DNA of 64,000 nucleotides from Proteus terrae (GTDB lineage: Bacteria > Pseudomonadota > Gammaproteobacteria > Enterobacterales > Enterobacteriaceae), in contig NZ_PENS01000001.1 of assembly GCF_003144325.1 (NCBI RefSeq), forward strand, positions 1 through 64,000. The letters run 5' to 3'. The position numbers and the translations under genes were made by a program. Below, one piece after another: positions 12,648 to 35,699 of the stretch (its first letter is position 1; each line of letters starts with the position of its first letter). The notes below the pieces were generated by a model that saw only the letters and a program-made list of their open reading frames with translations, was not told the origin of the DNA and searched no databases.

Positions 12648-13208
12648 ATGAAGCAACGTAAGTTTCTTACACGTTTTGAGATCAATTCTATTTTGAAACA
12701 AGCAAAGGAAGGACGGTATCCAGAAAGAGATTACTGTATGTTTTTAATGTGTTTTTTACATGGGTTTCGCGTTAGTGAACTATGCAGATTAACCCTCAGT
12801 GATATTGATTTGGAAAGTCGGATACTCTATGTCAGGCGTTTGAAGGGGGGGTTATCTACAACGCAACCAATTATTGAAGAGGAGTACGAAGCGTTAGTTA
12901 ACTGGTTGAAAAAACGGGAAACATGGCGAGAATCTGATTCAGAATGGGTCTTTTTATCCCAAAAAACAGGACCTATTTCACGTCAGCAGGTGTATGGATT
13001 ACTACGTCGTTTAGGTAAAGATGCTAATGTATCCGTTTCTCCTCATCCCCATATGCTACGCCATGCATGTGGCTATGCACTAGCAGATTTAGGTAGAGAT
13101 ACCCGTTTAATTCAGGATTACTTGGGACACCGTAATATTTCACATACTGTTATCTATACCGCAAGTAATTCAAAACGATTTGTTCACATTTGGGATATAA
13201 GAAATTAA
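12648..13208 (+). CDS. mrpI: MrpI tyrosine recombinase (fimbrial phase switch)
   Basis: 186 residues, the short FimB/FimE type of tyrosine recombinase. The catalytic set is visible: Arg in HGFRVSEL (about residue 42), Lys in RRLKGG (about 66), HPHMLRH (about 136-142), GHRN (about 165) and the tyrosine nucleophile in HTVIYT (about 174). It is divergent from mrpA with the invertible element between them, as in P. mirabilis, where MrpI alone inverts the switch in both directions. Start is ATG after AAAGGTTATAAAA. Confidence 0.95.
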   Translation: MKQRKFLTRFEINSILKQAKEGRYPERDYCMFLMCFLHGFRVSELCRLTLSDIDLESRILYVRRLKGGLSTTQPIIEEEYEALVNWLKKRETWRESDSEWVFLSQKTGPISRQQVYGLLRRLGKDANVSVSPHPHMLRHACGYALADLGRDTRLIQDYLGHRNISHTVIYTASNSKRFVHIWDIRN

Positions 13209-13645: not shown

Positions 13646-14869
13646 TTAACCTTTTACACAAACAACCTGTCGTAGTGTATGAACAACCTCAACAAGCGAT
13701 AACTGAGCCTTCATTACAGCATCAATATCCTTATAAGCCATTGGAATTTCATCAATCACATCTTCATCTTTTCGACATTCCACATGCGCTGTAGCTCGAA
13801 TTTGGTCTTCAATACTAAAGGCTTTTTTCGCTGCTGTTCGGCTCATTACGCGTCCTGCGCCATGGCTACATGAACAGAAACTTTCGGCATTTCCCTTACC
13901 TCTAACAATAAAGCTCTTCGCTCCCATTGAACCCGGAATGATCCCCATTTCACCTTTTTGAGCAGAAACAGCCCCTTTTCTAGTCACCAGTACCTCTTCA
14001 CCAAAGTGCATTTCTTTTTGCACATAGTTATGGTGGCAGTTCACTGCCTGTTGTTGAGTTGTAAAAGGTTTAGTTATTTCTGTTGATAATGCCGCCAACA
14101 CGCGTTCCATCATAATTTCACGATTATGTCGGGCAAAATCCTGTGCCCATTCTACGGCTTCTATATAGTCATCATAGAAAAGCGTTCCTTCTTTTAAGTA
14201 CGCTAAATTTTTATCTGGCAAGTTAGCGATATGTTCTCTCATGTCTTCTTGTGCCATTTGTATAAATAAAGTACCAATAGCATTACCCACACCACGAGAT
14301 CCACTATGTAGCATTACCCAAACATTATCTGCTTCATCAAGGCACAACTCGATAAAGTGGTTTCCTGTTCCTAATGTACCTAGGTGACGATAGTTATTTG
14401 TATTTCGTAAACGTGGATACTTATCAGTTAAAACCTTAAAACGCCCTTCAAGTTGTTGCCAATGTTGATCAACAAGTTTAGGTGGGTTCTTCCATGAACC
14501 ACGATCGTTCCCTGACTGATAACTTGTTCGTCCATGAGGTACTGCTCTTTCTATTGCCGTTCTTATGGCAAATAAATTATCTGGCAAATCATTTGCGTGT
14601 AACGATGTTTTTACCGCAATCATTCCACATCCAATATCTACACCAACAGCAGCCGGAATAATCGCACCTTTTGTTGGGATAACACTTCCTATTGTTGAAC
14701 CTTTCCCTAAGTGAACATCGGGCATTACTGCCATATGTTTAAAAATAAAAGGCATCTTTGCAGTATTGATAAGTTGCTTTAGAGCATCTGCTTCAACAGG
14801 TACACCATTTGTCCACATTTTGATTTCAGCAGTCCCTGCTTCTTTTACTATTTGATGATCCAATATCAT
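13646..14869 (-). CDS. rtcB: RtcB RNA ligase
   Basis: 407 residues, nearly identical in length to E. coli RtcB (408) and very similar throughout. It joins RNA 2',3'-cyclic phosphate or 3'-phosphate ends to 5'-OH ends using GTP and Mn2+. Visible motifs: VGVDIGCG (metal-binding Cys at about 79), TGNHFIEL, LHSGSRGVG, GSMGAKSF and SCSHGAGR, which holds the guanylylated histidine. It overlaps the slipin gene by 4 bp, so the two are translationally coupled. RtcA, the cyclase often encoded next to RtcB, is absent here. Confidence 0.97.
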   Translation of the reverse strand: MILDHQIVKEAGTAEIKMWTNGVPVEADALKQLINTAKMPFIFKHMAVMPDVHLGKGSTIGSVIPTKGAIIPAAVGVDIGCGMIAVKTSLHANDLPDNLFAIRTAIERAVPHGRTSYQSGNDRGSWKNPPKLVDQHWQQLEGRFKVLTDKYPRLRNTNNYRHLGTLGTGNHFIELCLDEADNVWVMLHSGSRGVGNAIGTLFIQMAQEDMREHIANLPDKNLAYLKEGTLFYDDYIEAVEWAQDFARHNREIMMERVLAALSTEITKPFTTQQQAVNCHHNYVQKEMHFGEEVLVTRKGAVSAQKGEMGIIPGSMGAKSFIVRGKGNAESFCSCSHGAGRVMSRTAAKKAFSIEDQIRATAHVECRKDEDVIDEIPMAYKDIDAVMKAQLSLVEVVHTLRQVVCVKG

Positions 14870-16011
14870 TCTTGTGCTCCTTTAATTTGTACTAGCCCGT
14901 TTAATACTTGGTCTAAACCACCATAAACGGAAATCTTATCAATACGTTCTGCAATACGTTCTACGGTTTCTAGCTCTTTTAATCGTAGAGCTACTGGATT
15001 GTTTTCCATCACTTTTGCCGTATTTAATAAAGAACGTGTTGCGGATGTTTCTTCTCTTCGACGTATAACATTAGCCTGAGCTGATTTTTCAGCCTCAACC
15101 ACCTGCGCTAAAATCGTTTTCATTTCACCCGGTAAAACAATGTCTTTTACCCCTAATGAAGCTACTTCAATGCCATATCCTTTAGTCACTTCCCTGATTT
15201 TTTCACTTACTAAACTGTCAATCAGTGTTTTATTTTCTAATAATTCATCCAATGTTCTTGTTCCTACGGCTTCACGTAACGCAAACTGCAACTCTTTGTA
15301 TAAGAACTCAAGAGGTGAACTCAGTAGTTGGTACGCTGAAAGCACGTCGCGATAACGCCAACTCGCTGACAGATTAATGCGTAAGGTCACTTTATCTTTC
15401 GTTAAAATCTCTTGACCACTTATATCGAGTGTTTGTAAGCGCATATCAACGACTTCAACATCAATTTTGTGCTGATAACGCCAATAGCCTTTTAATCCTG
15501 GTGGTAATAGTGATTGAGTTTCACCATTAACACGGATAATGCCGGCATGCCATGTCGGAATATCCACACTTAATACACCTTCACTGCCTTTTATCGTCTG
15601 GTTACGTAATTTTGGATGCTGCAATTTTTTAACCAAAGCTGGTGAAACTTCCAATTCATTTGCTGACAATACTTCCATTGAGCGCTGTGCATAATTCCAA
15701 TAGAGACGGCGAGTGCTCGGCGCTAAGATCTCTTTGAGTGAACCATTTTCATAGAGTAAGCCAATCTCTTCATCAGATAGCACAATATCAAAACAATATT
15801 CACTCACCCATTCTGGATGATATTGACGTAAAAATTCGGCTTTCTCTCTTTCAATTGCAGGGCCGTTTAATTCCACCAGCTCAACACTTAATTGGCGGCG
15901 AAGATCGAAAAATTTATGTTCACCCACAGCAAGGACATCAATATATTCATCGTCCTTCTTTAATAAACCCAGTTGTCCCTGTTTCACTTTTATTGTTGTT
16001 CTTATCATCAT
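14866..16011 (-). CDS. Slipin / SPFH-band 7 family protein of the rtc operon
   Basis: 381 residues. The N-terminal ~110 residues are specific to this protein. Residues ~160-330 form an SPFH/band 7 domain (VDVEVVDMRLQTLDISGQEILTKDKVTLRI, ASWRYRDV, FALREAVGTRTLDELLENK, YGIEVASLGVKDIVLPGEM). A coiled helical segment follows (VVEAEKSAQANVIRRREET). Stomatin-like proteins scaffold membranes, but no strong transmembrane helix is visible here. It overlaps rtcB by 4 bp and sits behind the RtcR/sigma54 promoter, so it probably works with RtcB. Its role in RNA repair is not known to me. Confidence 0.85.
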   Translation of the reverse strand: MMIRTTIKVKQGQLGLLKKDDEYIDVLAVGEHKFFDLRRQLSVELVELNGPAIEREKAEFLRQYHPEWVSEYCFDIVLSDEEIGLLYENGSLKEILAPSTRRLYWNYAQRSMEVLSANELEVSPALVKKLQHPKLRNQTIKGSEGVLSVDIPTWHAGIIRVNGETQSLLPPGLKGYWRYQHKIDVEVVDMRLQTLDISGQEILTKDKVTLRINLSASWRYRDVLSAYQLLSSPLEFLYKELQFALREAVGTRTLDELLENKTLIDSLVSEKIREVTKGYGIEVASLGVKDIVLPGEMKTILAQVVEAEKSAQANVIRRREETSATRSLLNTAKVMENNPVALRLKELETVERIAERIDKISVYGGLDQVLNGLVQIKGAQE

Positions 16012-16246
16012 TGTTTCCCTTTTCTCTTCTTTATTATTGGCTTTCTTTTATTACCATTTTTATCGTGACTTGCTCTCCACGAACAAACTTGGCGAAATCG
16101 AAGGGAAAACAAGAGAGGAACGATACTCTGTTTGTCTCTTATTCTGCCTTCAATCCAGCGTAGTTGCTGGTGGATAAGCAAGGTGACGATACTGCTGTCA
16201 CAACGATTTTTTATATTTAATTTTACATTTGGATTTGTAATGGTTT

Positions 16247-16372
16247 TGGTGTCAGGAATCGAACCTGAAAATAACCCTCTTCACCTACAGAGTCTCGATG
16301 TGGAGGAACACATTTTGATAACACCACAGAGTGTTCTTTATGTGCCTACCAGATTTAAAATCTGCTCAAGAC
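16247..16372 (-). ncRNA. tRNA-like (Y-RNA-like) small RNA leading the slipin-rtcB operon
   Basis: A 79-base core (16325 down to 16247) reads like a distorted tRNA. Acceptor-like GGTGTTA can pair with TGACACC. A D-arm-like hairpin has arms ATGTG / CACAT (16298-16313). An anticodon-arm-like hairpin pairs CTCT with AGAG. The T-arm, TCAGG-TTCGATT-CCTGA, is canonical, and ACCA ends the core. The acceptor plus T stem is about three pairs too short for a true tRNA. Salmonella rtc operons carry tRNA-mimicking Y RNAs (YrlA) at this place; no rsr (Ro60) gene is seen here. Upstream bases to the predicted start at about 16372 add another hairpin (CAGATT / AATCTG). The tRNA-like fold is seen; the Y-RNA link is inference. 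Confidence 0.6.
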
Positions 16373-16383
16373 ATTAATAATAT

Positions 16384-16399
16384 TGCGAGTATCGTGCCA
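16384..16399 (-). promoter_or_regulatory. sigma54 (-24/-12) promoter of the tRNA-like RNA-slipin-rtcB unit
   Basis: On the minus strand: TGGCAC, five bases, then TCGCA. This matches the RpoN consensus TGGCAC-N5-TTGCA with one change in the -12 box. Transcription would start near 16372, just before the tRNA-like RNA. RtcR, encoded divergently, is a sigma54 activator. Confidence 0.85.
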
Positions 16400-16505
16400 A
16401 GTTTTTAAATATCACCAAAATCATTTTTAACCATATGTTTTAATTAATAAAAATATTTTCAATGTAATTTTTAAATATTTAGCCATTGAATTAAAATCGA
16501 TAAAA

Positions 16506-16553
16506 ACTTATCTTTTTATCTAAAGATTTATAAATATAGATAAAAAGATAAGT
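16506..16553. promoter_or_regulatory. Perfect inverted repeat, probable RtcR activator site
   Basis: Arms of 16 bp (ACTTATCTTTTTATCT at 16506-16521 and its exact complement at 16538-16553) are separated by 16 bp. The repeat lies about 110-155 bp upstream of the sigma54 promoter, a usual distance for an enhancer-binding protein site. It ends 12 bp before the rtcR start, so it may also give autoregulation. No T tract follows, which speaks against a terminator. Confidence 0.7.
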
Positions 16554-16565
16554 AGAGATAACTTA

Positions 16566-18158
16566 ATGAAACGCAAAGTGGTGATTGGTGTTTTAGGCAC
16601 AACATTAGATAAACGGGGAAAAAGCCATAAAAGATGGAACTCATGGCGTCCAACAATTTCTATTTGCCATCAAAAAGATTTCCCCGTTAGTCGATTGGTC
16701 ATGATCCATCAACCCAATGATTCAATATTAGCGTCAAAAATCATTGAAGATATCCATACTGTCTCCCCAGATACAGAAGTATTACCTTACGAAATTGATA
16801 TTTGTGATCCTTGGGATCTAGAAGAGGTTTACAGCCACTTTCTTGATTTTGCAGTGAGCTATCCATTTGATACTGAAAATGAAGAATATTATGTCCATAT
16901 CACAACGGGTACGCACATCTCTCAGATTTGCTGGTTTTTACTGACTGAAGCCCACTACTTACCTGCAAAACTATTACAAACTTCCCCCTCTTCTAAAATC
17001 GAAAATGAAGATGGTATCAAAACAGTACAATCAGCCACGGGGAGTTATTCTGTTATTGATCTCGATTTAAGCCGTTATACAAAACTAACAAGCCGATTCG
17101 AGCACTACCATAATGAATCACTCTCTTTCTTAAAATCAGGGATAGCCACACGCAACGAACGTTTTAATGCTTTAATTGCTCAGATTGAGCGAGTGGCATT
17201 ACGCTCTGTTGCACCCATTTTATTAACAGGTCCCACAGGAGCCGGGAAATCATTCCTTGCTCAGCGTATTTATGAATTACGGCAGTCTCGCCATTTTGTA
17301 AAAGGTCGTTTTATTGCTGTTAACTGCGCCACTTTGCGCGGTGATAACGCCATGTCTACTTTATTTGGCCACGTAAAAGGGGCATTTACAGGTGCATTAC
17401 AAGCTAGGCAAGGCTTATTAAGGGAGGCCGATAAAGGAATTTTATTTCTTGATGAAATTGCGGAATTAGGACTTGATGAACAAGCAATGTTACTGAAAGC
17501 AATAGAAGAAAAATCTTTTTATCCTTATGGTTCCGATACTGAAGTTCAAAGCGATTTTCAGCTAATTGCGGGAACGCATCGGGATATGGACAAACAAATT
17601 GCGAAAGGGCTTTTTCGTGAAGATCTCTATGCAAGGATCAACTTATGGTCTTTTTCTCTGCCGGGTTTAGCCGATCGCAAAGAGGATATTGAGCCTAACA
17701 TCGATTATGAATTACATCACTTTGCAAAGCTTTATCAAAAGGCAATTCGCTTTAATTCTGATGCGAAATCACACTATATTCGATTTGCAACATCTGAACA
17801 GGCATTATGGCGTGGTAACTTCCGTGAACTTAGTGCTAGTATAACGCGAATGGCAACACTTGCCGAAAATGGTCGTATTACCCTTCCTCTTGTTGATGAA
17901 GAAATTAATCGTTTAAAACAAAATTGGGGTGTTACTTCCTCTTCTTTATTTAATAGTTCTGATATTGATCTTTTCGATCTTAGCCAACTCAATACAGTTA
18001 TCAAAACATGTCAGCAATCATCAACGCTCTCAGAAGCTGGTAGAAAACTTTTCGCAGTATCAAGACAAAATAAAAAACAACCCAACGATGCCGATCGTCT
18101 ACGTAAGTATCTTGCGAAATTCGATTTAAGTTGGGAACAAATTCGACACGGAGAATAA
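16566..18158 (+). CDS. rtcR: RtcR sigma54-dependent activator of the RNA-repair operon
   Basis: 530 residues in three parts: an N-terminal CARF-like Rossmann domain (about 1-185), an AAA+ domain with Walker A GPTGAGKS (about 219-226), the sigma54-contact motif GAFTGA (about 272) and Walker B ILFLDEIAE (about 292), then a C-terminal DNA-binding region. In E. coli the CARF domain holds RtcR inactive until an RNA-derived ligand is sensed. It is divergent from slipin-rtcB and lies next to the inverted repeat likely to be its site. rbn follows 9 bp after its stop. Confidence 0.95.
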   Translation: MKRKVVIGVLGTTLDKRGKSHKRWNSWRPTISICHQKDFPVSRLVMIHQPNDSILASKIIEDIHTVSPDTEVLPYEIDICDPWDLEEVYSHFLDFAVSYPFDTENEEYYVHITTGTHISQICWFLLTEAHYLPAKLLQTSPSSKIENEDGIKTVQSATGSYSVIDLDLSRYTKLTSRFEHYHNESLSFLKSGIATRNERFNALIAQIERVALRSVAPILLTGPTGAGKSFLAQRIYELRQSRHFVKGRFIAVNCATLRGDNAMSTLFGHVKGAFTGALQARQGLLREADKGILFLDEIAELGLDEQAMLLKAIEEKSFYPYGSDTEVQSDFQLIAGTHRDMDKQIAKGLFREDLYARINLWSFSLPGLADRKEDIEPNIDYELHHFAKLYQKAIRFNSDAKSHYIRFATSEQALWRGNFRELSASITRMATLAENGRITLPLVDEEINRLKQNWGVTSSSLFNSSDIDLFDLSQLNTVIKTCQQSSTLSEAGRKLFAVSRQNKKQPNDADRLRKYLAKFDLSWEQIRHGE

Positions 18159-18167
18159 TATTTCATT

Positions 18168-19085
18168 ATGGAGCTCACTTTTTTAGGCACTAACGCAGGC
18201 GTCCCTTCTAAAGATCGCAATGTCACCAGTATGGTGCTTGATTTACAAAATAAACAAAAAAGTATGTGGATGTTTGATTGTGGTGAAGCGACACAACATC
18301 AAATATTGCATACCCGCGTAAAATTACCGCGTTTAAATAAAATTTTTATTACCCACTTACATGGCGATCATATTTTTGGTTTACCAGGATTACTTTGTAG
18401 TCGCTCAATGGGAGGAACCGAAACACTTTTAACAGTGTATGGCCCTACGGGTATCAAAGCCTTTATAGAAACGGCGTTGACATTAAGCCAATCCTATTTA
18501 ACTTACCCTATTAATATTGTTGAAATTGACAAAGCGGGCTTTCTGTTTGAAGAGGAAGGTATGAAAGTGAGTTGTGAAGCACTTTCTCATCCTGTACCTT
18601 GTTTTGGTTATCGCTTAGAAGAAGAAAACAGCCCGGGTAAATTAAATGCAGAAAAACTGAAGGTTGACAATATTCCTGCGGGCGCTTGGTTACAAGAATT
18701 AAAACAAGGTAAAACCATTACCTTGCCAGATGGAAGAGTTATTGACGGCAAAGAGTATATTGGCCCTGAAATAAAAGGACGCTGTATTGCTATTTTTGGT
18801 GATACACAACCCACGCCGGATGCATTAAAACTGGCTAATAATGCAGATATTATTGTTCATGAAGCGACGTTTAAACATGAAATGGCAGAGCAAGCAAATA
18901 GCCGTGGACACTCAACAACGGTACAAGCAGCACAGTTAGCCAAAGACGCTAATGCCAAAAAGCTGATTATCACACATATTAGTAGTCGCTATTCCCCCGA
19001 AGACTGTGTTGGATTACTCAATGAAAGCCAACAGATCTTTAGCCATACTGAAATGGCTTCTGATTTTGAGGTATTTAAGTTGTAA
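18168..19085 (+). CDS. rbn: Ribonuclease BN / RNase Z
   Basis: 305 residues, standard length for bacterial RNase Z/BN (ElaC). It is a metallo-beta-lactamase-fold nuclease acting on tRNA 3' ends. The zinc motif THLHGDHIFGLPG is at about residues 61-73, with downstream ligands in LSHPVPCFGYR, IFGDTQ, HEATF and the C-terminal ITHISSRY. It starts 9 bp after the rtcR stop, so it is probably cotranscribed with rtcR. That links a tRNA 3'-processing enzyme to an RNA-repair regulator. In E. coli rbn (elaC) is not next to rtc. Confidence 0.93.
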   Translation: MELTFLGTNAGVPSKDRNVTSMVLDLQNKQKSMWMFDCGEATQHQILHTRVKLPRLNKIFITHLHGDHIFGLPGLLCSRSMGGTETLLTVYGPTGIKAFIETALTLSQSYLTYPINIVEIDKAGFLFEEEGMKVSCEALSHPVPCFGYRLEEENSPGKLNAEKLKVDNIPAGAWLQELKQGKTITLPDGRVIDGKEYIGPEIKGRCIAIFGDTQPTPDALKLANNADIIVHEATFKHEMAEQANSRGHSTTVQAAQLAKDANAKKLIITHISSRYSPEDCVGLLNESQQIFSHTEMASDFEVFKL

Positions 19086-35622: not shown

Positions 35623-35699
35623 TGGCGGAACGGACGGGACTCGAACCCGCGACCCCCTGCGTGACAGGCAGGTATTCTAACCAACTGAACTACCGCTCC
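35623..35699 (-). tRNA. tRNA-Asp (GTC)
   Basis: 77 bases reading GGAGCGG at the 5' end and CCGTTCCGCCA at the 3' end, with encoded CCA. The anticodon stem-loop CCTGCCTGTCACGCAGG gives anticodon GTC. It is almost identical to E. coli tRNA-Asp from memory. It lies next to dnaQ, as aspV does in E. coli, a locus where islands often insert. Confidence 0.97.

What the first reader, a model, noticed from the sequence alone, without database searches (positions are those of the whole stretch)
16247..16372. A tRNA-like RNA appears to lead the RtcR/sigma54-controlled slipin-rtcB operon
The leader between the sigma54 promoter and the slipin gene folds as a distorted cloverleaf with a canonical T-arm (TCAGG-TTCGATT-CCTGA), a D-like and an anticodon-like hairpin, and a GGTGTTA/TGACACC closing stem ending in ACCA. 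The stacked arm is about three pairs shorter than in true tRNA. Salmonella rtc operons contain tRNA-mimicking Y RNAs, but there they come with the Ro60 homologue Rsr; here the protein partner is a slipin. The RNA could be a Y-RNA-like effector, a substrate or decoy for RtcB, or a sensor ligand for the RtcR CARF domain.
Basis: partly seen in the sequence, partly recalled or inferred. Interest (0 to 1): 0.85.

Follow-up and report, generated by a model that had tools for sequence, protein, structure and literature searches.

The report
Partial tRNA mimic leading slipin operons
A conserved RNA that imitates part of a tRNA sits in front of the slipin gene of bacterial RNA-repair operons, in Proteus and in about three in ten complete E. 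coli genomes, and the annotations and papers I searched do not describe it.

Summary
It starts at the predicted sigma54 start site and forms a three-helix 5' domain, then a partial tRNA mimic: a short acceptor-like stem plus a canonical T-arm, with a short loop in place of the D and anticodon arms. ARAGORN and Rfam (YrlA included) do not recognise it, and the genome has no Ro60 homologue. The RNA follows slipin: of 392 family genomes, 39 have the RNA, 39 the slipin, 38 both, adjacent. It stays where the nucleotidyltransferase RlaP follows slipin instead of rtcB, and in a genome without RtcR. In mostly beta-proteobacterial loci a second, cloverleaf-like RNA follows, and several operons carry tRNA arrays. 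The locus lies in 1624 of 5426 complete E. coli genomes, including lab strain W. Best reading: a tRNA-mimicking noncoding RNA made with, and probably working with, slipin in repair of damaged tRNA. A cis-acting mRNA leader is the main rival. Function is untested.

The parts
16384..16400 (-). sigma54 (-24/-12) promoter-like element TTGGCACGATACTCGCA
   Evidence: pattern search, 1 match against 0.05 expected; a like element was found in 44 of 44 Enterobacterales loci with a wider pattern
16237..16375 (-). conserved leader RNA, 5' domain plus acceptor/T-arm minihelix (model R1)
   Evidence: cmsearch 92.2 bits, E 1.8e-24 (the window, cut at 16367, is one of the 38 sequences in the model); covariation
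16292..16372 (-). 5' domain: P1 GTCTTGA 16372-16366 with TCGAGAC 16298-16292, enclosing P2 16364-16350, P3 16346-16340 with 16313-16305 (two-base TT bulge) and P4 16334-16321
   Evidence: column counts on alignment A1, in which the window's own P1 5' strand was not included; energies on the window
16248..16285 (-). partial tRNA mimic: acceptor-like GGTG 16285-16282 with CACC 16251-16248, 13-nt loop, T-arm 16268-16252; followed by AAAACCA
   Evidence: GGTTCGA invariant in the 38 rows of A1
16095..16170 (-). candidate second structured domain: hairpin CCAGC/GCTGG (16170-16155) and helix ATTGAAGG (16154-16147) with CCTTCGAT (16104-16097)
   Evidence: helix search without a shuffled control on related loci; the window pairing read by eye; alignments
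14866..16011 (-). slipin family protein (SPFH/Band_7), 381 aa; three tandem five-strand beta units, the third opening the SPFH part, then a long helix
   Evidence: Pfam PF01145; AlphaFold2 models
13646..14869 (-). rtcB RNA ligase
   Evidence: Pfam PF01139, E 1.4e-130
16566..18158 (+). rtcR, sigma54-dependent activator, divergent
   Evidence: Pfam PF06956, E 4e-78, and PF00158
18168..19085 (+). tRNase Z-like gene beside rtcR (context)
   Evidence: Pfam PF12706 and PF13691; a relative lies beside rtcR in 19 of 44 Enterobacterales loci

Best explanation
The leader encodes a dedicated noncoding RNA of the slipin RNA-repair operon. Transcription from the RtcR/sigma54 promoter begins at the first base of helix P1, which seals the 5' end. 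The acceptor/T-arm minihelix at its 3' side imitates the upper half of a tRNA and is probably cut by the tRNA-processing enzymes, leaving a stable RNA of about 130 nt with a tRNA-like 3' end. The RNA then works with the slipin, as Y RNA works with Ro60/Rsr in the Salmonella operon, to handle tRNAs broken by anticodon nucleases for ligation by RtcB or completion by RlaP. Shown here: the conserved structure, the linkage to slipin, persistence without a neighbouring rtcB and without RtcR, the partial tRNA mimicry. Inferred: the start site, processing, stability, slipin binding, the role in tRNA repair.
For: Covariation: 83.6% of cells paired against 40-52% when slid; 29 of 37 pairs changed on both sides; 0 of 500 shuffles as high on four of five measures. 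Alignment-free test of the acceptor-like stem: Enterobacterales mean score 10.14 against a highest of 8.99 in 300 partner swaps (a helix of 4 bp or more in 35 of 42 leaders); 21 mostly beta-proteobacterial loci 14.90 against 12.31 (21 of 21). P1 (GTC or ATC) begins exactly 12 nt after the -12 GC in 36 of 44 leaders. RNA in 39 and slipin in 39 of 392 genomes, 38 shared, 156-226 nt apart. RNA kept where slipin is followed by RlaP and in L123, whose genome shows no RtcR. In the 21 loci the acceptor-like stem is 6-7 bp in 16 and is followed directly by NCCA in 12. Loci without RtcR carry tRNA genes upstream (14 of 21) against none of 15 loci with RtcR. In Anabaena a tRNA array, rtcB and a slipin gene are derepressed together (PMC10272220, passages).
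Against: No expression data. A leader directly 5' of one gene in every shared genome is also what a cis-acting element would give. Two of 44 Enterobacterales leaders (L074, L075) lack the T-arm motif but keep the 5' domain. Seven of 42 Enterobacterales minihelices have no acceptor stem of 4 bp or more, and the helices found in L060, L073, L083 and L086 lie at odd distances and may be chance. In Proteus the acceptor stem is only 4 bp and single-sequence folding gives it 0.066. One of the five covariation measures (further pair types) did not exceed its shuffles. No slipin or SPFH protein is known to me to bind RNA.
Confidence: 0.45

Rival explanations
1. Cis-acting mRNA leader: the structured 5' UTR controls slipin translation or mRNA stability, and the T-arm minihelix is a landing or cutting site for tRNA enzymes that lets tRNA-damage status set slipin output.
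For: RNA lies directly upstream of slipin on the same strand in all 38 shared genomes, one match per genome; a candidate second domain reaches close to the ribosome-binding site.
Against: P1 starts at the predicted start site in 36 of 44 leaders, as expected for an RNA with a protected 5' end; by eye no sequestering of the ribosome-binding site (not tested by a calculation); related loci have NCCA ends (12 of 21) and a second tRNA-like RNA in tandem, which is more than an mRNA leader needs.
Confidence: 0.33
2. Bait or decoy: the RNA competes with tRNAs for an anticodon nuclease or other tRNA-targeting attacker, or is itself an RtcB/RlaP substrate or a ligand that switches RtcR off or on.
For: tRNA mimicry; the second tRNA-like RNA has varied anticodon loops, and in 8 of 29 the arm is too short for a 7-nt loop on 5 bp; RtcR responds to damaged tRNAs in Salmonella (PMC7790460, title, start of abstract and passages).
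Against: The Enterobacterales mimic has no anticodon arm to be cut; it persists without neighbouring rtcB (13 of 44 loci) and in L123, whose genome shows no RtcR; YrlA was not cut in Salmonella (PMC7790460, passage).
Confidence: 0.15
3. Relic of a tRNA gene captured in the leader.
For: T-arm intact, other arms missing.
Against: Compensatory change throughout, including a 5' domain unlike tRNA, from Proteus to beta-proteobacteria; a relic would not keep pairing.
Confidence: 0.03
4. A divergent YrlA (bacterial Y RNA).
For: Same operon position next to RtcR-controlled repair genes; T-arm mimicry.
Against: No YrlA match to E 5 in 15500-17000 or to E 2 in eight of nine related loci; the one weak match (23.2 bits against a cut-off of 69) starts at the second T-arm of L089. 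Order of arms differs; no TROVE protein in the genome.
Confidence: 0.03

Closest known systems
YrlA / bacterial Y RNA (Rfam RF02553) of the Salmonella rsr-yrlBA-rtcBA operon
   Same: Noncoding tRNA mimic within an RtcR/sigma54-controlled RNA-repair operon (PMC7790460 and PMC8394870, passages read)
   Different: YrlA's model runs T-arm first, then D-arm (alignment), and YrlA goes with Rsr; this RNA has a 5' three-helix domain, then an acceptor/T-arm minihelix, and goes with slipin; no Rfam match
tRNA-like domain of tmRNA
   Same: Acceptor plus T-arm mimicry
   Different: No tmRNA call by ARAGORN in the window; a tag-like reading frame was not looked for
Anabaena trn operon (L-array) and TrcR regulon
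   Same: tRNA array, rtcB and a slipin gene derepressed together, an HNH gene next to the array (PMC10272220 and PMC9938897, passages read); locus L189 has six tRNAs, an HNH gene, slipin and an RtcB-like gene
   Different: Repressor TrcR instead of RtcR; gene numbers show separate places, not one operon; whether the Anabaena slipin has this leader was not tested
RlaP (PF10127) RNA-repair nucleotidyltransferases
   Same: Takes the place of rtcB after slipin in the two loci scanned; predicted to restore lost nucleotides before ligation (PMC7824862, passages read)
   Different: That paper's text does not contain the word slipin
Major vault protein and vault RNA
   Same: Slipin model aligns to MVP chains over 429-490 alignment columns, gaps included (Foldseek E 1.2e-11 to 2.9e-9, TM 0.34-0.40); beta units, then SPFH-like domain, then a long helix
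   Different: In the second look only 1 of 10 MVP rows reaches the N-terminal part; that part alone matches MVP only weakly (E 0.25; Z 3.9); cage formation and RNA content untested

Membership tests
YrlA (RF02553) | covariance-model match at the gathering score (69 bits) | tested here: not met
   not listed for 15500-17000 up to E 5; in 9 related loci one match, 23.2 bits, on another part
YrlA (RF02553) | T-arm followed by D-arm (permuted order) | tested here: not met
   5' domain first, T-arm last in the conserved structure
YrlA (RF02553) | Rsr/Ro60 (TROVE) partner in the genome | tested here: not met
   0 matches in the window's genome; 1 of 14 control genomes, Deinobacterium, rings
YrlA (RF02553) | T-arm mimicry | tested here: met
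   GGTTCGANTC in 42 of 44 Enterobacterales leaders
canonical tRNA | tRNA gene call in the leader | tested here: not met
   ARAGORN: only tRNA-Asp at 35623-35699 in the window; none in 43 Enterobacterales loci L044-L086
canonical tRNA | 7-bp acceptor, D arm, anticodon arm, T arm | tested here: not met
   T arm met; acceptor-like stem 4 bp in Proteus, 4-7 bp where found in Enterobacterales; loop there 0-24 nt in place of D and anticodon arms
RtcR/sigma54 regulon | -24/-12 element upstream | tested here: met
RtcR/sigma54 regulon | RtcR binds and activates | not testable with these tools
   needs an experiment; rtcR is adjacent and divergent
SPFH/slipin proteins | Band_7 domain | tested here: met
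   PF01145, 94.8 bits; stomatins are the best matches by sequence and structure
vault (MVP + vault RNA) | SPFH-like shoulder with long helix | tested here: met
   MVP Z 11.7, rmsd 3.6, 197 residues, model 146-346; stomatin and other SPFH proteins score higher
vault (MVP + vault RNA) | tandem MVP repeats before the shoulder | tested here: inconclusive
   alignment to 6bp7 spans model 6-362 (257 residues, rmsd 8.9, Z 10.2), but the N-terminal part alone gives Z 3.9 and no Foldseek match at E <= 0.001
vault (MVP + vault RNA) | cage assembly containing the RNA | not testable with these tools
   needs microscopy and pull-down

The most novel reading that the evidence does not exclude
The RNA is the RNA subunit of a bacterial SPFH-cage ribonucleoprotein: slipin (tandem beta units, SPFH shoulder, cap helix, as in major vault protein) assembles into a ring or cage around this partial tRNA mimic and holds broken tRNAs for RtcB or RlaP, a soluble vault-like counterpart of the Ro60-Y RNA machine.
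Probability: 0.12. Interest if true: 0.95.

Novelty: new variant of a known kind. Interest (0 to 1): 0.77.

Why it matters
The tRNA mimics of repair operons that I found in the papers seen are Y RNAs, which go with Ro60. Here is a second RNA, with no detectable relation to them, in the same kind of operon, tied to an SPFH protein of unknown role. Its locus is present in 1624 of 5426 complete E. coli genomes including the laboratory strain W, with no Rfam match in the W leader and no RNA annotated in the two E. coli records viewed. It gives a handle on two open questions: what slipins do in RNA repair, and why repair operons keep tRNA mimics. The tRNA arrays in related operons suggest one programme that both repairs and replaces tRNAs.

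Tried and rejected
YrlA and tRNA models on the Enterobacterales RNA: no match. Nucleotide search of 149 family genomes with the Proteus leader: 23 with a match, all but the window's own of 19-43 bases; taken as chance, not examined. Model R1 below about 32 bits matches ordinary tRNA T-arms, so only stronger matches were counted; L089 (30.3 bits) is uncertain. R1 in 295 order genomes: 84 at E <= 0.001, of which 2 strong, the rest at about 31 bits or less. Plasmids with the Proteus leader: none; with the Kosakonia leader: one Citrobacter plasmid. Slipin in phages: none at E <= 1e-20. Slipin on plasmid records: 8, only the Citrobacter one viewed. Vault idea: N-terminal part alone gives no significant match, so it is kept only as the novel case. 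Second domain: 17 of 80 loci have 8 or more contiguous pairs, 38 of 80 had no candidate for the motif used, no shuffled control, so it is only a candidate. Anticodon loops of the second tRNA-like RNA: the script reports 11 of 29 not 7 nt long, but it prefers long stems, and three of these (L098, L114, L123) have the normal 17-nt arm; I count 8 of 29. In one search the script counted one locus with both RtcR and a tRNA (L118); that tRNA is the second tRNA-like RNA itself (2184-2258), so I treat it as none. YrlA model in 198 family genomes: 184 with some match at E <= 0.01, 6 over the cut-off; I take the weak ones to be ordinary tRNAs and did not check them one by one. Paper searches, ten in one open-access library, that listed no description of this RNA by title and abstract; passages of seven papers were read. 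Burroughs and Aravind 2016 and Chen et al. 2014 were not held, so earlier mention there of slipin or of such an RNA is not excluded.

Full report
What is there. The window is from a Proteus: its slipin is 85-96% identical to those of Proteus records. On the minus strand a sigma54-like element (16384-16400) is followed by the leader, a slipin gene (Band_7) and rtcB; rtcR and a tRNase Z-like gene lie divergently. ARAGORN finds no tRNA there, and cmscan of 15500-17000 up to E 5 lists neither tRNA nor YrlA. Alone, the stretch folds no better than shuffles (z -0.58).

Comparison. One scan of genome contigs with the slipin protein kept the best 80 loci, 44 of them Enterobacterales (L044-L086 and L090). 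In 42 of these 44 the leader holds a T-arm motif (GGTTCGANTC), 123-169 nt after the start of a sigma54-like element; L074 and L075 lack the motif. I aligned the window and 37 of these leaders, leaving out seven (L046-L049, L074, L075, L090); the window row was cut at 16367 and so lacks its P1 5' strand. A hand-drawn structure was counted on it: 83.6% of cells paired, against 40.0-51.7% when the 3' partners are slid; 29 of 37 pairs have changes on both sides; 167 such cells against a shuffled mean of 52.9. Helices P2 and P3 are best (95.6% and 97.8%); P1's outer three pairs and P4 are poorer (65.7% and 65.8%), by eye partly from misalignment. 'Further pair types' did not exceed its shuffles (153 of 500 as high). 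The structure was drawn from these same sequences, which favours it over the slid versions.

The tRNA-like part. The acceptor-like stem plus T-arm pair in 83.3% of cells against at most 57.5% slid, though 13-20 of 38 rows have a gap in the acceptor-like stem. An alignment-free test agrees: the mean of the best helices between the two flanks of the T-arm exceeds all 300 partner swaps and all 300 shuffles, in 42 Enterobacterales leaders (7 without any helix of 4 bp or more: L054, L058, L063, L071, L072, L081, L090) and in 21 further loci, mostly beta-proteobacterial (none without). The loop between that stem and the T-arm is 0-24 nt in the first set and 13-28 nt in the second, too short for both a D and an anticodon arm. 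Energy models on Proteus alone do not settle the acceptor stem.

Start of the RNA. In 36 of 44 Enterobacterales leaders the first three bases of P1 (GTC 28, ATC 8) lie exactly 12 nt after the GC of the -12 element. By the usual sigma54 geometry (recalled) this is the start site, so P1 would seal the 5' end.

Distribution. A covariance model R1 finds all 45 Enterobacterales leaders including the window at 55.8-136.4 bits (38 of them built the model), and L123 at 43.1, L100 36.6, L087 34.8, L105 33.0 and L089 30.3 among the other loci; the rest of L087-L123 score no higher than ordinary tRNAs do. In 392 family genomes 39 have R1 at E <= 1e-7 and 39 the slipin at E <= 1e-70; 38 are the same genomes, each with one RNA match 156-226 nt before the slipin match. 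The exceptions are G028 (49% complete, RNA only) and G588 (a 43% identical slipin, no RNA). In Escherichia coli the leader and the start of slipin match in 1624 of 5426 complete genomes, 1623 of them over at least 80% of the query; a longer query covering slipin and the next gene matches the same number. In the two records viewed (strain 165 and strain W) the locus lies between yjbD and lysC, with a nucleotidyltransferase and a zeta-toxin gene after slipin; neither record annotates the RNA, and R1 scores 92.6 and 88.3 bits there. Rfam at gathering thresholds finds only the lysine riboswitch in the W locus.

Who travels with it. In 13 of 44 Enterobacterales loci no rtcB follows slipin. Of these I looked at four (L054, L063, L081, L085): each has a gene of 261-266 aa there, and the two scanned are RlaP, PF10127. 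RtcR was missing at E <= 1e-60 from 12 of 16 genomes picked for a closer look, 9 of the 12 metagenome-assembled by their titles; L123, an isolate among the 12, keeps the RNA. L081 and the two E. coli records have no rtcR beside slipin. The constant partner is therefore slipin.

Beta-proteobacteria and gut symbionts. In 21 loci the first mimic has an acceptor-like stem of 4-8 bp (6 or 7 in 16), followed directly by NCCA in 12. A second tRNA-like RNA lies just before slipin in 29 parsed loci, including Gilliamella, which shows only this one: D and T arms look normal, but only 8 of 29 acceptors pair in all seven positions, and in 8 of 29 the anticodon arm is too short for a 7-nt loop on 5 bp. ARAGORN calls many of these tRNA, and Rfam four of four in the non-E. 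coli loci scanned, two of them without the acceptor ends. Of 36 loci (L087-L123 without L090), 15 have RtcR in the stretch and none of these a separate tRNA gene upstream, whereas 14 of 21 without RtcR do, 1-14 each; four of the seven misses hold less than 1.2 kb upstream. L192 holds 18 tRNA genes besides the tRNA-like pair, an RtcB and the slipin; L189 six tRNAs, an HNH gene and an RtcB-like gene around the slipin. In Anabaena a tRNA array, rtcB and a slipin gene are repressed by TrcR (PMC10272220, passages), with an HNH gene next to the array (PMC9938897, passage).

The slipin. The AlphaFold2 model (pLDDT 81.3, pTM 0.60; N-terminal 190 residues alone 90.6 and 0.81) shows three five-strand beta units, the SPFH core and a long helix. 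In L069, L094 and L086 the protein is 515-524 aa long and the N-terminal part is repeated. Stomatin is the best structural match; major vault protein chains also align, but the N-terminal part alone has no significant match.

Mechanism and weight. The structure, its place and its partner are shown. That it is cut free, is stable, binds slipin and serves tRNA repair is inferred from tRNA mimicry, from the RNA-repair genes around it and from the parallel with Rsr and YrlA (PMC7790460 and PMC8394870, passages). T-arm hairpins are substrates of TruB and TrmA, and acceptor/T-arm helices of RNase P (recalled), which makes processing plausible. A cis-acting leader explains the strict adjacency at least as well and is the main rival.

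Noticed in passing
18168-19085 (+): A tRNase Z-like gene directly follows rtcR in the window, and a relative lies beside rtcR in 19 of 44 Enterobacterales loci: a tRNA 3'-processing enzyme next to an RNA-repair regulator.
   Followed up: partly
L095, L096, L097, L099, L103, L106, L108, L111, L123 (upstream of slipin): Arrays of 4-14 tRNA genes upstream of slipin in loci without RtcR; L192 (around L108) holds 18 plus an extra RtcB.
   Followed up: partly
L069, L086, L094 (2989-4575): Slipin proteins with a repeated N-terminal part (515-524 aa instead of 381); L074, L083, L092, L101, L107, L109, L112 and L114 show the same pattern of overlapping matches.
   Followed up: partly
L195 6353-7279 (-), E. 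coli W: A zeta-toxin family gene sits beside the slipin-nucleotidyltransferase pair in E. coli W and strain 165.
   Followed up: no
L189 3441-4034 (-): HNH endonuclease gene between the tRNA array and slipin, recalling the HNH gene next to the Anabaena array.
   Followed up: no
12648-13208 (+): Phage-integrase family protein of 186 aa (PF00589), the size of a fimbrial-type recombinase (recalled), close to rtcB.
   Followed up: no
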